Shown here piece by piece: positions 14,568-20,524 of a DNA stretch of 64,000 nt. The notes under the pieces are model-generated. The model saw only the letters and a list, made by a program, of their open reading frames with translations, was not told where the DNA came from and ran no database searches. The stretch spans positions 1,302,001 through 1,366,000 of the forward strand of contig NZ_SNUF01000001.1 of assembly GCF_012027305.1 (NCBI RefSeq). Direction: 5' to 3'. Both the position numbers and the translations under genes were made by a program. The stretch is from Thermococcus sp. MAR1. Lineage in GTDB: Archaea > Methanobacteriota_B > Thermococci > Thermococcales > Thermococcaceae. Each line of letters starts with the position of its first letter. Position 1 is the stretch's first letter.

Positions 14568-15224
14568 ATGCTAGACTTTCCCCACGATATGCACACTCAC
14601 TCAGCGTACTCCGACGGCGTTGGCGGGATAGGAGACAACGTTGCGGCCGCAGAGGTCAGGGGCTTGAAACTTATCGGGATAAGCGACCACAGCCACTACC
14701 TAACCGGGAAAGCCTTCAACCGATATATCCGAGAGATCCGCCACTGGGGAGAGGAGAGCGAGATAACTGTTCTGGCAGGGATCGAAGCCAATATAACCTC
14801 CGGCGGCGTCGACGTGGCCGCGGGGATTGCTGAAAAGCTCGATTACGTCATTGCCAGCGTCCACCTCTGGCTAAATGACCCGGAGGAATACATTGAGCTC
14901 GTGAAAGCTGCAATACTAGACGAGAGCGTTGACGTAATCGGGCACTTCGGGGCGAGTTTTCCGTACATCGGCTATCCCGATGAGGAAAGCTTGAGGGAGC
15001 TCATAGAGCTAGCGGAGGCAGAAGGAAAGGCCTTCGAGATAAGCTCCCGCTACCGCGTTCCAGATATGGGCTTCATAAGGGAATGCATAAGGCGCGGTGT
15101 AAAGCTGGTCTTCGCGAGCGACGCCCACAGGCCAAGGGACGTTGGGAGCGTCTCCTGGAGCGAGAGGGTTTTCAAGAAGGCGGGAGGAAAAAAGGAAGAC
15201 CTCTTGTTCGGAGAGTTATTGTAA
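14568..15224 (+). CDS. PHP-domain metal-dependent phosphoesterase
   Basis: A 218-residue PHP-superfamily hydrolase with the metal-binding DMHTHSAYSDG (7-17), GISDHSHYL (about 38-46), a GIEANI strand with its Glu, SVHLW, GHFG and the final SDAHRP. The set of His/Asp/Glu ligands is complete, so it is probably active as a phosphatase such as a histidinol-phosphatase-like enzyme, but the substrate is not indicated. The stop codon is 5 nt before the last CRISPR repeat. Confidence 0.87.
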   Translation: MLDFPHDMHTHSAYSDGVGGIGDNVAAAEVRGLKLIGISDHSHYLTGKAFNRYIREIRHWGEESEITVLAGIEANITSGGVDVAAGIAEKLDYVIASVHLWLNDPEEYIELVKAAILDESVDVIGHFGASFPYIGYPDEESLRELIELAEAEGKAFEISSRYRVPDMGFIRECIRRGVKLVFASDAHRPRDVGSVSWSERVFKKAGGKKEDLLFGELL

Positions 15225-15229
15225 GTTTG

Positions 15230-16353
15230 CTTTCAATTCTCCTAGAGTCTTATTGAGGGGGGACGTTCCGTCCCCCACACCCCCTCGAACTTAAACTCAT
15301 AAAAACCTCGGAGTTCTCCTAGAGTCTTTTATTGCAACATGAAATATGCCTCAGCGATGAGGATCTCAAAAAACCTTTCAATTCTCCTAGAGTCTTATTG
15401 CAACACCCCTACATCGCCCTCGCGCTCCTGATGTTCCTCATCTTTCAATTCTCCTAGAGTCTTATTGCAACGAGCCGCTCCCGTTCTCGGTTCAGATGCC
15501 TTCGGAGCTTTCAATTCTCCTAGAGTCTTATTGCAACGTAAGGTAATTTTTCTTGTGACTGCAACTGTTCTCTACTTTCAATTCTCCTAGAGTCTTATTG
15601 CAACTAATACAAAATCAGCGTCTGTTAGTGTTGTCCCGTTCCTTTCAATTCTCCTAGAGTCTTATTGCAACGCCGGCCTCCATTCCTGCGGCGTACATCA
15701 CAATCCCCTCTTTCAATTCTCCTAGAGTCTTATTGCAACGCGATGAAGTGATGATAGTATGCTAGTACAAAGCCAACTTTCAATTCTCCTAGAGTCTTAT
15801 TGCAACTCCATTTTCTCACCCCGTCGCGAAGTAGTCCACAACCCTTTCAATTCTCCTAGAGTCTTATTGCAACTACCCGAGCTTAAGAGAATAATACAGG
15901 AGAAACCCCACCTTTCAATTCTCCTAGAGTCTTATTGCAACTTTCCACGCGGTGGTGGATTCGGCGTGTATTGAGAGCTTTCAATTCTCCTAGAGTCTTA
16001 TTGCAACCAGGTTGGTCAGGAGAGGTTCGTGATGTTCAACGCTTTCAATTCTCCTAGAGTCTTATTGCAACCGAGGACATGGCCTACACAATCTTCGACG
16101 CAATAGTGACCTTTCAATTCTCCTAGAGTCTTATTGCAACTTATGGTGGGCCGCGTGGCTGAGCTTACCGAGTTCGACCTTTCAATTCTCCTAGAGTCTT
16201 ATTGCAACTTTGTCACGAAACTCAAGAAACCCCACCGCTTGTCCGTGTATCTTTCAATTCTCCTAGAGTCTTATTGCAACGTACAAAAAGTTGTTCCGCC
16301 AGACCCCAGAGTTCTCAAAGCACCTTTCAATTCTCCTAGAGTCTTATTGCAAC
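15230..16353 (-). CRISPR. CRISPR array, 15 intact and 2 degenerate repeats, transcribed on the minus strand
   Basis: A 30-bp repeat, reading CTTTCAATTCTCC then TAGAGTCTTATTGCAAC on the plus strand, starts at 15375, 15442, 15508, 15575, 15642, 15710, 15777, 15844, 15912, 15978, 16042, 16111, 16179, 16251 and 16324 without change. Two degenerate copies end the left side: 15307-15338 (altered first 7 bases, 2-nt insertion) and 15230-15255 (last 4 bases lost). Spacers are 34-43 nt. The minus-strand repeat ends in ATTGAAAG, identical to the crRNA 5' tag of Pyrococcus Cas6 systems; degenerate repeats on the left and a TATA element on the right agree that the leader is to the right. No cas gene is in the window, so the array must depend on proteins encoded elsewhere. 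Confidence 0.98.
15258..15276. repeat. GC-rich hairpin inside the degenerate end of the array
   Basis: GGGGGACG-TTC-CGTCCCCC is a perfect 8-bp stem with a 3-nt loop. It occupies the 51-nt interval between the two degenerate repeats, beyond the last regular spacer. On the minus transcript it would be the last structure before the terminal repeat. Confidence 0.6.
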
Positions 16354-16800
16354 AGGCTGGAATTTCCTCCCATTTGCCTAATAAGCCTCTAAAACACTCC
16401 CAATATTTAAGCCTTTCTGGAAACCGATAGAAAAGGGACTCTCATAATGCCTGAAACGGTGAGGCCAGAGAGCTCGGAAGAGTTAAAGGGGAGTCCAAGA
16501 GACTGCAAACGTTCAGTGAACAGAAAAGTTCATGTAATTTCCCGAGCACCGTGGTACGTCCAAACGCCGAAAACAGCGATATTAATATTTTAAAATCCAA
16601 AATATCCAATTTTAACAAGTTGCCGGCGTTTTCGAACCCTGCTCCTTCCCTGTTATGATTCTCGAAGAAATTTCGTTACAATCAATGCTCAAAATAGTGA
16701 CAATAAGTTATACTCTCGGAACCATAAAAAGTGATTTCCCGAGAGGCTCACCGGCGGAGTTTTAGAAACCACCCCCTCTGAAGAGAGGTATCTGAAAAAT
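16354..16800 (-). promoter_or_regulatory. CRISPR leader region
   Basis: About 450 bp without a convincing gene, AT-richer than the surroundings, directly next to the first (newest) repeat. On the minus strand GGCTTAAATATTG (16413-16401) is a good TATA element that would start transcription about 25 nt before the first repeat. Leaders of this size are known beside Thermococcales arrays. A 48-codon frame at 16447 is present but I do not think it is a gene. Confidence 0.75.
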
Positions 16801-16808
16801 AAATGCCC

Positions 16809-17369
16809 TCAGCGTGATATGACGTCAAATCCAAGCTCCCTCAGCTTCCAGACTATCTCCAGCGGGAAGCCGACGACATTGTAGTAGTCCCCTTTAATCC
16901 ACTCAACGAAGAGGCCGGCTTTTCCTTGGATTCCATAGGCACCGGCCTTGTCCATGGGCTCGCCGGTCTCGATGTAGGCCCATATTAACTCATCGTCCAG
17001 CTCGCGAAACTTGACCTCCGTGATAACTGATCCGGATATTTCTTTACCTCCATGGATTATGCAGTAGCCCGTCGTGACCCTGTGAACCCTTCCGCTGAGA
17101 AGCTTGAGCATTCTAAAGGCGTCTCCCTCATCTTTGGGCTTTCCAAGGATTTTCCCATCTATGCTGACCACCGTATCGGCGCCGATGACGGTTCCGCCCA
17201 CGCGTTCGTAAACTTCCCATGCCTTCCTCCTGGCGAGTTCCAGGGCGTACTCGGCGGGGTTTTCCAGGTCGCACTCCTCACTCGCCCTGCTCGGAATAAC
17301 CTCGAACTTATCTAGGAACCGGGCGAGTATCTCCCGCCTCCTCGGTGAGGCAGAGGCCAGAACCAGCAT
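16809..17369 (-). CDS. maf: Maf-like nucleoside triphosphate pyrophosphatase
   Basis: House-cleaning enzyme that hydrolyses dTTP/UTP or modified nucleotides to monophosphates. The 186-residue protein shows the Maf signature LASASPRRREIL (4-15), the ADTVV stretch with catalytic Asp (about 66-70), GKPKD and the C-terminal YNVVGFPL. ATG at 17369 follows GGAGGAG. The A/T-rich GATTTTTTAACC (minus strand, about 17387-17399) is the likely promoter and is shared with the sRNA on the other strand. Confidence 0.93.
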   Translation of the reverse strand: MLVLASASPRRREILARFLDKFEVIPSRASEECDLENPAEYALELARRKAWEVYERVGGTVIGADTVVSIDGKILGKPKDEGDAFRMLKLLSGRVHRVTTGYCIIHGGKEISGSVITEVKFRELDDELIWAYIETGEPMDKAGAYGIQGKAGLFVEWIKGDYYNVVGFPLEIVWKLRELGFDVISR

Positions 17370-17414: not shown

Positions 17415-17474
17415 CCCGGCGATGAAGACAATTTCGCTAGCTGAGGCGTGATGAGTACCCTCGCAGCTGAGCCG
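17415..17474 (+). ncRNA. C/D box guide sRNA (23S rRNA 2'-O-methylation guide)
   Basis: All four boxes are present in order on the plus strand: C (GCGATGA, 17419-17425, one mismatch to RUGAUGA), D' (CTGA, 17441-17444), C' (GTGATGA, 17448-17454, perfect) and D (CTGA, 17467-17470). A terminal stem pairs CGGC (17417-17420) with GCCG (17471-17474). The D' guide AATTTCGCTA (17430-17439) is complementary over 10 nt to UAGCGAAAUU of the conserved 23S segment GGUAGCGAAAUUCC; the N+5 rule points to the C of that segment. The D guide is GTACCCTCGCAG, target not identified. TATA-like GGTTAAAAAATC (17389-17400) lies about 25 nt upstream. Confidence 0.82.
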
Positions 17475-17660
17475 TTACGTGGATCTTTTGAATCCCGTCC
17501 ACTTTTCGATGCTTGAAACGAGTAGGTAAACAAAGGCCAGTACCCAGAGGAAACTTCCCACCAGTAGGGCGTCTGAACCAACAAAGAACACCGACAGATA
17601 TGCAAGTAGGCCTCCAATTGCCAGAGTCCAGAAAACCCTATCCTTCCATACCCTCACCAT
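17475..17660 (-). CDS. small two-helix membrane protein E (fifth gene of tiny membrane operon)
   Basis: A 61-residue protein of unknown function: a short basic start (MVRVWKDRVF), two hydrophobic segments (about 10-26 and 31-49) and a short charged tail (SSIEKWTGFKRST) that lacks the long coiled coil of the four genes before it. ATG at 17660 lies inside the end of gene D (23-nt overlap) with a GAGAGG site ahead. It closes the operon that begins at 18561. Confidence 0.6.
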   Translation of the reverse strand: MVRVWKDRVFWTLAIGGLLAYLSVFFVGSDALLVGSFLWVLAFVYLLVSSIEKWTGFKRST

Positions 17661-17886
17661 CGTCCTCTCCCCCACTGGACTCACCTAGGATGAACTCCAG
17701 TTCGAGAATCCTGTCTTCCAGGCGCTCCAGCTCCCTCCAGATGGCGAGAAGCAGAAAGGCCAGAACAACGAAGGAAACGCCAAGGTAGAAATCCACAGCC
17801 TTCCTGTGTTCTGGCTGGGCGTACATAAGCATGGAGATGGATATGAGAAGTGCAAAGAGCGCCGAGAGATCCCTAACGAGCTTCAT
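17638..17886 (-). CDS. small two-helix membrane protein D with coiled-coil tail
   Basis: An 82-residue protein of unknown function. Two membrane segments (about 6-22 and 33-49) precede a heptad-like helix WRELERLEDRILELEF (about 50-65) and a Glu/Gly-rich acidic end. It overlaps gene C by 14 nt and gene E by 23 nt. The shared plan with genes A-C (hairpin in the membrane, charged helix in the cytoplasm) suggests they form hetero-oligomers; this is an inference. Confidence 0.65.
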   Translation of the reverse strand: MKLVRDLSALFALLISISMLMYAQPEHRKAVDFYLGVSFVVLAFLLLAIWRELERLEDRILELEFILGESSGGEDDGEGMEG

Positions 17887-18112
17887 CTCCCCTCACCTCC
17901 TCAAGCTCCTTCTTGAGCCTCTTTATTTCGCGGTTCAAAGTCGATATCTCTGATCTCAAAGTGCCTATCTCGTTCGCCACCCCGATGAATGTCCAGCCGA
18001 CGAGGGCAAAGAGCAGAACAACCATGATGACAAAGAACCATCTCACAGGATACATCAGTAAGAGGATTGAAAGGACGATTACCCCAAAGCCCCTGGTGGA
18101 GACGTCAACCAT
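17873..18112 (-). CDS. small two-helix membrane protein C with coiled-coil tail
   Basis: A 79-residue protein of unknown function. Hydrophobic segments at about 9-22 and 25-45 are followed by a long heptad helix NEIGTLRSEISTLNREIKRL (about 47-66) and KKELEEVR. ATG at 18112 is preferred to the TTG just before it; GGGAGG is 8 nt upstream. It overlaps gene B by 8 nt and gene D by 14 nt. Confidence 0.65.
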   Translation of the reverse strand: MVDVSTRGFGVIVLSILLLMYPVRWFFVIMVVLLFALVGWTFIGVANEIGTLRSEISTLNREIKRLKKELEEVRGDEAR

Positions 18113-18338
18113 CAATGGTGCCTCCCGGGCCTTTAAGAGACTCTATCTCCCCCCTTAGGGATTCGAGCTTCTCGTTGAACTCCCTCCTCATTTCGCCCAT
18201 CTTCCATACAATGAGCCCCATTGCAAGCAGGAGAGGACCAAAGAGCAGCCCGGCTTCTCTGGCAATAAGGAGAACTACCAACCCAACCCCTGCCACGACT
18301 GCCCCAACGGCCTCAAGGACGTCATACTCATTCCCCAT
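18105..18338 (-). CDS. small two-helix membrane protein B with coiled-coil tail
   Basis: A 77-residue protein of unknown function. Membrane segments at about 9-26 and 30-46, then a charged helix MRREFNEKLESLRGEIESL (about 50-68). It overlaps gene A by 11 nt and gene C by 8 nt. Confidence 0.65.
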   Translation of the reverse strand: MGNEYDVLEAVGAVVAGVGLVVLLIAREAGLLFGPLLLAMGLIVWKMGEMRREFNEKLESLRGEIESLKGPGGTIDG

Positions 18339-18561
18339 CTTCCCGGGCTTCCAAGTTCTTCAGCTCTTCAAGGGCCTTTTTCAGCTCTGCGAGTCTATCC
18401 TCGATCTCATAGACCTTAACCAGTAGGAGTACCATGATTACCAGGGGAAAGGCCAGAAGGAGTGTCCCCAGGAAGCTCATGCCCGTTGGAAGGAAGGGGG
18501 TGAGGATTAGGATAATGAAAAAGACCGCTCCAAGGGTGGCCAGCACATCGGCGGCTCCCAC
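18328..18561 (-). CDS. small two-helix membrane protein A with coiled-coil tail (first gene)
   Basis: A 77-residue protein of unknown function. Two hydrophobic segments (about 5-24 and 29-49) precede a heptad helix VYEIEDRLAELKKALEELKN (about 50-69). The start is GTG with GGTGG ahead. It is the promoter-proximal gene of a five-gene overlapping set; a TATA element (ACTTTTTATAG on the minus strand, about 18593-18603) sits about 35 nt upstream, just past the end of the PINA-like gene, so the set is an independent transcription unit. Confidence 0.65.
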   Translation of the reverse strand: MGAADVLATLGAVFFIILILTPFLPTGMSFLGTLLLAFPLVIMVLLLVKVYEIEDRLAELKKALEELKNLEAREDGE

Positions 18562-18607
18562 TTCTTACCACCATGAAAAAGAAGAAGGCAAACTATAAAA
18601 AGTTTTC

Positions 18608-20416
18608 TCAGGCGGTCGCCCAGATGGATATCCCCGCCTCGATGAGCCTTTTCAGCTCTTTTCCTATCGGCGTGCTCTTGCTGACCTTGACGAGGCCCTT
18701 CTTGCTGGGCGTTGCGGTGAAGACGTACTGCTCGCCACCGTAGAACTTGAGGGGTTTCTTCGCGTAGTCGGGTGAAACCCTCAGGACAATCGTTTTCTTC
18801 TTTTCCTCTATCTCTACGGGTATCTTTTCCTTCGGCCTCTCGGCTTCCCTCTCGGTGAAGCTCTTGACGTCGATGCTTATACCTATCCTCTTCTCCAGCT
18901 CTGTAATCCTCTTCCCCTTCTTGCCGATTATCGCAGGAATATCGAACTCGTCGGCGTAAACTATCGCCTTGTGCGGGCTTACTATCTCGACCTCGGTATA
19001 GACATCGGGCAGGAACTTCTTTATCTCCTGCTTGAGCCTCTTCTCTGCCAGCCTCAGCGCCGGGGCCTTCTCCTCCTTCTTGACGGGCACGACGCTTATC
19101 TCCTCGCCGTAAGTGTATATCTCGTACTCAAGCTCGCCAGTTTCAAAATCGCGAACCTCTATCACCGGCCTCGCTAAATCCTCCTCCCTCATGCCGCTCG
19201 GCACCTTGACGAGGTACTCCAGCGTCAGGACCTTGGCGACCCTTCCGGCCTTGATGAAGATGACGGTATCGACTATCTGTGGTATCATTCCGAGCTCCAC
19301 CCTTCCGATGAAGCGCTGGACTGCATCTATCGGCTTCGTTGCGTGCACAACTCCTACCATACCCACTCCCGCCAGGCGAAGGTCAGCGTATATCTTGAAG
19401 TCGCTCGTCTTCCTCATCTCGTCGAATATCGTGTAGTCCGGCCTCACCAGGAGGAGTATGTCACCGGTCTTCTCCATCCTGCCGCTCAGGGCAGTGTACT
19501 GGGTTATCTCTTCACCGACCTGAAGGTCGCGGGGCTTCTCCATCGTCTTGACTATCTTGCCCATGCCCGCGTACCACTCAGCCAAGGCCTGGGCAAAGGT
19601 CGTCTTTCCTTCACCGGGTGCTCCGGCGATGAGTATCCCCTCCGCCTTCTCCCTGAGGCGCTCCATGAGCTTCTCGCTCAGCTCGTAGTCCTCTATGCTG
19701 AGCTTCTTGACCGGCCTGACGGCGGTTATCTCTATCCTGTCCGCGAAGGGCGGTTTGGCTATGACTATACGGTAGTTCCTGAGCTGAACGACAGTCGCTC
19801 CGGGCTCGTCGAGCTCTATGAAGCTCTCGGGGTCGCGCTTTGCCCTCTCGACTATGTCGTCGGCTATCTCCTCAAGCTCCTCGTCGGTCAAAACCTCCTC
19901 GCCCGTCGGAACGAGCCTCCACTCGCCCGGCCTTCCCTTCTTTGCGAGGGGCCTCAGCCCGGCCTTCAGGTGAACGCTCATCGTCGTCTCGTCAAAGAAA
20001 TCCTCCAGGCGGTGCTTGACCTCTTTTCTGGCGGTCAGGTATATCACCTCTATGCCCTTGGCTATCGCTATATCCCGTTGCACCTGGTCGCCGGTTATCA
20101 GGGTGGCGCCCAGCTCCCTGGCTATCTCCCTGACTATGTTGTCTATCTCCCCGGACTTGGCCCTCTTTATCTGCCAGAGCTCGGGTCTCTCTCCATGGAA
20201 CTCCAGTATGATCCTGCCCTCGTTTGCCATTTCGCGGAGCTTCTTGAGCTCCTCGAGCCCAACGTGGCCTATCGCCTTCCCCTCGTTGGCCTGGTGCTCT
20301 ATCTCCGCTATGACCGCCTCGGGTATGATGACCTTGACCTTCCCTTCAACGCCCGCAAGGAACTGGGTCAGCCTGCCGTCAACGATCACGCTCGTATCAG
20401 CAACAAACATCCTCAT
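18608..20416 (-). CDS. PIN-domain ATPase with KH domain (PINA type)
   Basis: A 602-residue archaeal protein built from an N-terminal PIN domain (MFVADTSVIVDGR with Asp7; later GEIDN and TGDQVQRD for metal binding), a GspE/TadA-like hexameric ATPase (Walker A GAPGEGKT at 265-272; a TIFDEMRKTSD Walker B region) and a KH domain with GKKGKR near residue 500. The crenarchaeal homologue PINA is reported to move Holliday junctions and cooperate with Hjc and Hjm; the same role here is inferred. ATG at 20416 follows GGTGA; the frame upstream is open but lacks a ribosome site. Confidence 0.88.
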   Translation of the reverse strand: MRMFVADTSVIVDGRLTQFLAGVEGKVKVIIPEAVIAEIEHQANEGKAIGHVGLEELKKLREMANEGRIILEFHGERPELWQIKRAKSGEIDNIVREIARELGATLITGDQVQRDIAIAKGIEVIYLTARKEVKHRLEDFFDETTMSVHLKAGLRPLAKKGRPGEWRLVPTGEEVLTDEELEEIADDIVERAKRDPESFIELDEPGATVVQLRNYRIVIAKPPFADRIEITAVRPVKKLSIEDYELSEKLMERLREKAEGILIAGAPGEGKTTFAQALAEWYAGMGKIVKTMEKPRDLQVGEEITQYTALSGRMEKTGDILLLVRPDYTIFDEMRKTSDFKIYADLRLAGVGMVGVVHATKPIDAVQRFIGRVELGMIPQIVDTVIFIKAGRVAKVLTLEYLVKVPSGMREEDLARPVIEVRDFETGELEYEIYTYGEEISVVPVKKEEKAPALRLAEKRLKQEIKKFLPDVYTEVEIVSPHKAIVYADEFDIPAIIGKKGKRITELEKRIGISIDVKSFTEREAERPKEKIPVEIEEKKKTIVLRVSPDYAKKPLKFYGGEQYVFTATPSKKGLVKVSKSTPIGKELKRLIEAGISIWATA

Positions 20417-20524
20417 CTCTCTCACCTCAGAAGATTTCAAACTCTCCTTCTTTTGCGTTACTTCCAAAGGGGGCTATAACTAAAGGTTCATAAAGGTTTA
20501 GCCGAAAAATAAATGGGTGGGACA

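What the first reader, a model, noticed from the sequence alone, without database searches (positions are those of the whole stretch)
17475..18603. Operon of five overlapping tiny membrane proteins with coiled-coil tails
Five consecutive genes of 61-82 residues overlap each other by 8-23 nt behind one promoter. Each encodes two membrane helices; four then have a 20-30 residue charged heptad helix. They are similar in plan but not obviously in sequence, so they look like parts of a hetero-oligomeric membrane complex assembled through the tails. None belongs to a family I know. Neighbours are a PIN-ATPase and a MinD-type ATPase, which act on DNA and membranes, but the operon has its own promoter.
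Basis: partly seen in the sequence, partly recalled or inferred. Interest (0 to 1): 0.7.

Follow-up and report, generated by a model that had tools for sequence, protein, structure and literature searches.

The report
Shuffling operon of tiny membrane proteins
In heat-loving Thermococcus archaea, one spot on the chromosome holds one to five tiny membrane proteins of no described family, always in the same order but with members lost and versions swapped between species, which suggests fast-changing optional membrane parts rather than one fixed five-part machine.

Summary
Five overlapping minus-strand genes (A 18328-18561, B 18105-18338, C 17873-18112, D 17638-17886, E 17475-17660) lie behind one conserved archaeal promoter; each encodes a two-helix membrane hairpin, and A-D end in a heptad helix. 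Overlaps are 11, 8, 14 and 23 nt. All five frames are real genes: residues are conserved, most dN/dS estimates lie between 0.1 and 0.5, and overlap lengths are conserved. No family passes a Pfam or NCBIfam cut-off, and no relatives were found outside Thermococcus and one sister genus, or in viral contigs.

The interpretation as one five-part complex does not fit comparative data. Of 61 genus genomes about 35 keep some of the locus and only four keep all five intact; the rest keep ordered subsets (ABE, BC, B, CD, D, E and others). Alleles reassort: all four combinations of two A types and two C-D-E types occur among close relatives. The flanking PIN-ATPase is 97% identical where A is only about 45%.

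Best reading: a modular, dispensable, fast-evolving accessory operon of hairpin/coiled-coil proteins that mostly self-associate and act separately at the cytoplasmic membrane, possibly in conflict with viruses or neighbours. The function is inferred, not shown.

The parts
18593..18607 (-). archaeal promoter (BRE/TATA GAAAACTTTTTATAG) of the operon, directly after the PIN-ATPase stop codon
   Evidence: Near-identical element in front of the first cassette gene in most loci, whether that gene is A, B, D or E, and in recognisable form in the sister genus
18567..18572 (-). Shine-Dalgarno-like GGTGGT before gene A
   Evidence: GGTGGTAA conserved close to the start codon of the first gene in most loci
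18328..18561 (-). gene A: 77 aa, two membrane helices, heptad tail (residues about 49-67)
   Evidence: ORF; orthologues in 12 loci plus one remnant; dN/dS 0.15-0.53
18105..18338 (-). gene B: 77 aa, two membrane helices, heptad tail; invariant W45 K46 G48
   Evidence: ORF; 22 genomes; AlphaFold2 model with helices 7-25 and 30-68, pLDDT 75
17873..18112 (-). gene C: 79 aa, two membrane helices, longest heptad tail (a mostly Ile, d mostly Leu, GCN4-like)
   Evidence: ORF; 17 genomes, one frameshifted; tail matches solved coiled coils
17638..17886 (-). gene D: 82 aa, two membrane helices, heptad tail then acidic end
   Evidence: ORF; 13 genomes, one frameshifted
17475..17660 (-). gene E: 61 aa, two membrane helices, no heptad tail in this genome
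   Evidence: ORF; 19 genomes including broken copies; tailed orthologues in the sister genus
17418..17472 (+). C/D box small RNA sR39, antisense, just past the E stop; downstream boundary of the cassette
   Evidence: Rfam RF01122, 76 bits, E 3.3e-18; at the same place in empty sites of other genera

Best explanation
A chromosomal cassette between the PIN-ATPase gene and the C/D RNA sR39 plus maf, driven by one conserved promoter. It encodes up to five small proteins, each a membrane hairpin with both ends inside the cell; the second helix runs on into a cytoplasmic heptad helix that most likely self-associates into small parallel coiled coils. The proteins act mostly independently, so lineages keep different ordered subsets. 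Members are lost repeatedly and alleles are replaced by recombination with edges in the conserved flanks. Shown: the genes, their order, the promoter element, gene-content variation, allele reassortment and purifying selection. Inferred: topology, self-association, and the role. The role I think most likely is a dispensable membrane device that alters the envelope against lineage-specific threats (viruses or neighbours), because the turnover resembles that of conflict loci.
For: Content is always an ordered subset of A-E, with families confined to this locus in 115 class genomes. PIN is 97% identical between genomes whose A proteins are 43-45% identical. Mosaic: G059 resembles G058 in A and B (92 and 88%) but G000 in C, D and E (84, 87, 92%), nucleotide identity switching between about 90% and about 50%, and all four A-type/E-type combinations exist. 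Different subsets sit in close relatives on the PIN tree. Broken copies are common. Tails carry 2.6-5.2 Lys+Arg on average, loops 0.1-0.4 (1.4 for D), which puts both ends inside. Heptad registers, and C-tail likeness to GCN4-type coils; second helix continuous with the tail in the B model. A precedent for hypervariable, recombining membrane-protein islands in Thermococcales is VARTIG (PMC8416519).
Against: dN/dS is mostly below 0.5, with no sign of positive selection in pairwise averages. The external loops are short and in A and C hold conserved prolines, so they do not look like recognition surfaces. No PADLOC hit and no viral relatives. No toxin or effector is linked. A is always found with B, and C with B or D, so partial partnership is not excluded.
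Confidence: 0.4

Rival explanations
1. One reading: a hetero-oligomeric membrane complex of all five proteins held together by the heptad tails.
For: Fixed order, translational overlaps of conserved length, shared plan, A always with B and C always with B or D; four genomes keep all five intact.
Against: Most loci have one to three members, and B, D or E alone occur; A-B and C-D-E alleles reassort; no consistent heterotypic charge matching; E has no tail in this genome.
Confidence: 0.15
2. Accessory regulators or scaffolds of an ordinary membrane enzyme or transporter encoded elsewhere, evolving fast simply because small hydrophobic helices and heptads tolerate change.
For: Purifying dN/dS, mostly 0.1-0.5; conserved residues at helix ends; membrane segments explain more of protein variability in Thermococcales (14%) than in some other lineages (PMC9425974).
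Against: Between-allele nucleotide identity falls to about 50% with edges at conserved flanks, which is more than drift of one orthologue; no conserved partner gene at the locus.
Confidence: 0.3
3. A decaying ancestral operon: remnants kept by chance with little present function.
For: Frameshifted or truncated members in several genomes (A in G017, C in G058, D in G015, E in G026, G107, G110) and many losses.
Against: Intact members are under purifying selection, and the promoter is kept in front of whatever gene remains in most loci.
Confidence: 0.15

Closest known systems
VARTIG hypervariable islands of Thermococcales (PMC8416519)
   Same: Restricted to Thermococcales; many small membrane proteins; content differs between relatives; recombination between species
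   Different: No Ig-domain protein at the head here, a fixed chromosomal site and a fixed gene order; sequence relationship to VARTIG membrane proteins was not tested
LapA domain (Pfam PF06305), membrane hairpin with a helical tail
   Same: Two membrane helices then a heptad tail; weak match of C over the second helix and tail (E 0.0011, below cut-off)
   Different: The match covers only TM2 plus tail and is below the curated cut-off; LapA is a bacterial LPS-assembly protein
FtsL and Rz-like spanins (one helix plus coiled coil)
   Same: Weak matches of C over TM2 plus tail (FtsL E 0.0002; spanin PHROG E 2e-5)
   Different: One membrane helix; FtsL score far below the curated cut-off; an unrelated Thermococcus TM-plus-coil protein scores highly against A and C in the same way

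Membership tests
LapA domain (PF06305) | score above the Pfam gathering cut-off | tested here: not met
   C: 19.3 bits against a cut-off of 28; no hit for the others
FtsL (NF049847 / TIGR02209) | score above the NCBIfam cut-off | tested here: not met
   C: 21 bits against 50, and 15.2 against 42.45
VARTIG module | large Ig-domain protein at the 5' end of the operon | tested here: not met
   The operon begins with a small membrane protein gene right after the PIN-ATPase; no large gene lies between PIN and maf
VARTIG module | variation driven by recombination between species | tested here: met
   Mosaic alleles and four A/E combinations
Known anti-phage defence proteins (PADLOC) | match to a PADLOC model | tested here: not met
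   No hit for any of the five at E 0.1
Virus-borne small membrane proteins | relatives on viral contigs | tested here: not met
   Five scans of IMG/VR, no relative
One paralogous family A-E | full-length profile similarity above generic TM-plus-coil background | tested here: inconclusive
   A-B 95%, A-C 94%, B-C 81% over 62-76 columns and above 30 regional shuffles, but an unrelated TM-plus-coil control reaches 92-93% with A and C

The most novel reading that the evidence does not exclude
An allele-shuffling membrane system of Thermococcus in which separate hairpin/coiled-coil modules are swapped between species, as in loci for kin discrimination, superinfection exclusion or immunity to rivals' membrane-active agents, with a fixed promoter and landing site acting as a stable platform.
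Probability: 0.2. Interest if true: 0.7.

Novelty: new variant of a known kind. Interest (0 to 1): 0.45.

Why it matters
The five protein families match no curated family, yet they show purifying selection, a conserved promoter, and turnover like that of conflict loci. They are small, they occur in a genus that includes species with genetic systems (own knowledge), and nature supplies one-, two- and three-gene versions, so the question of what a fast-changing set of tiny membrane proteins does in an archaeon becomes directly testable.

Tried and rejected
Pfam, NCBIfam, PHROGs and PADLOC searches gave no hit or only TM-plus-coil matches. Weak genome hits of A and C outside the locus (E about 1e-4) were, in the two read in this genome, 67-71 aa one-helix coiled-coil proteins next to unrelated genes. 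Profile-profile paralogy of A-E looked strong until a control scored about as high. The B model against the PDB gave no match below E 1, as expected for a bare hairpin; the C model is one straight helix with pTM 0.33 and says nothing about the hairpin. A viral origin was looked for and not found. The phylum search turned out to cover the same 115 genomes as the class search. The one genome-contig scan used a narrow peptide pattern and found only two Thermococcus MAGs, so distant relatives elsewhere cannot be fully excluded. Literature searches found no description of this operon.

Full report
1. The observation. On the minus strand between the PIN-ATPase gene (18608-20467) and maf (16809-17369) there are five overlapping ORFs, which I call A to E: A 18328-18561 (77 aa, GTG), B 18105-18338 (77), C 17873-18112 (79), D 17638-17886 (82), E 17475-17660 (61). 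They overlap by 11, 8, 14 and 23 nt. Each family has two hydrophobic segments, best seen across orthologues. A-D go on into a heptad helix; E here does not, but its orthologues in the sister genus do.

2. They are real genes. I used the PIN-ATPase to find the locus in 107 of 115 genomes of the class and read 80 of the intervals behind it. Profile classification gives loci that are always an ordered subset of A-B-C-D-E. Each family has 6-16 invariant positions. Pairwise dN/dS is mostly between 0.1 and 0.5; the few higher values come from near-identical pairs with very small dS or from the most divergent A alleles. The B-C junction keeps the same 8-nt overlap in every locus but one, where C is frameshifted.

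3. The promoter and the site. GAAAACTTTTTATAG, a pyrimidine-rich stretch and GGTGGTAA lie directly after the PIN stop. This block is conserved in front of A, B, D or E, whichever is first, and in recognisable form in the sister genus. Some loci with B, C or E first lack it (for example G003, G039, G036, G046, G042). The downstream edge is the C/D box RNA sR39 (17418-17472, plus strand, E 3.3e-18). In genus g4 and in some Thermococcus genomes the site is empty: PIN, sR39, maf. The cassette therefore sits in a defined place between conserved features.

4. Gene content. Counting copies that look intact (a hand tally): ABCDE in four genomes, ABCD two, ABDE one (C frameshifted), ABE one, ABC one, AB three, BC six, CDE one (contig end), CD two, B four, D two (one at a contig end), E eight. 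Broken copies also occur: A in G017, C in G058, D in G015, E in G026, G107 and G110. On a tree of the PIN gene, close relatives carry different subsets; for instance G028 (E), G017 (remnant A), G026 (ABCD plus broken E) and G014 (E) form one group. This points to repeated independent loss from a larger ancestral cassette. B, D and E can stand alone. A is never without B, and C never without B or D, which may reflect real pairing or just loss of adjacent stretches.

5. Allele exchange. The sharpest result is the mosaic among five close relatives whose PIN sequences are 97-99% identical. In A, {G000, G019} and {G058, G059, G035} form two classes, about 82-93% identical in DNA within and 45-60% between over most of the gene. 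In C-D-E, {G000, G059} oppose {G019, G058, G035}, with E about 42-53% between classes. All four combinations exist, so recombination between the A-B part and the C-D-E part is required. Identity returns to 95-97% around sR39 for all pairs without G035. Between-class dS for A, C and E (about 1.0 to saturated) exceeds that of PIN (0.35-0.55), so the alleles are older than the split of these genomes, or were imported.

6. What this says about mechanism. A and C-D-E alleles occur in either combination, and most lineages live with one to three members, so an obligatory five-part complex is unlikely. A crude count of g-e' charges gives C the best match to itself (+4 to +6 of 6 in most genomes, +2 in G026) and no consistent heterotypic preference. 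Charges place both ends in the cytoplasm. The B model shows helices 7-25 and 30-68, so the second membrane helix runs straight into the tail (pLDDT 75, alignment of only three sequences). I therefore favour hairpins that self-associate through the tails and act independently. That they serve in conflict is an inference from turnover; against it are purifying dN/dS, short conserved loops, and the absence of any defence or viral relative.

7. Relation to known things. No Pfam or NCBIfam model reaches its cut-off. Matches of C to LapA, FtsL and spanins cover only the second helix and tail, and an unrelated Thermococcus protein matches A and C in the same way. VARTIG islands (PMC8416519) are a precedent for recombining membrane-protein islands in Thermococcales, but this locus lacks the Ig-domain gene and has a fixed order. 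Whether A-E descend from one ancestor is undecided.

Noticed in passing
window 17418-17472 (+): C/D box small RNA sR39 (Rfam RF01122, E 3.3e-18) lies antisense just past the end of gene E and marks the cassette boundary; a simple pattern did not find it in several cassette-bearing loci.
   Followed up: partly
window 15219-16354: CRISPR array: about 17 copies of a repeat CTTTCAATTCTCCTAGAGTCTTATTGCAAC at 64-77 nt spacing, beyond maf.
   Followed up: partly
PIN-ATPase in G030, G027, G006, G060, G043, G094, G097, G098 and others: The ORF is about 1200 aa and its match is split at residues 271-272, inside the Walker A motif GEGKTT (268-273), which looks like an intein in the P-loop.
   Followed up: partly
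PIN-maf interval of G009, G010, G008, G045, G042 and others: A different gene of about 125 aa (MKYDVVIIPESFHRFDKHNMEHICPP...), apparently soluble, occupies the same interval, in some genomes together with gene E.
   Followed up: no
L096 2782-2985; L097 2660-2875: Two related one-helix coiled-coil proteins of 67 and 71 aa (PSGWISIILGL...) elsewhere in the genome; similar small proteins seem to give the weak hits in many Thermococcaceae.
   Followed up: no
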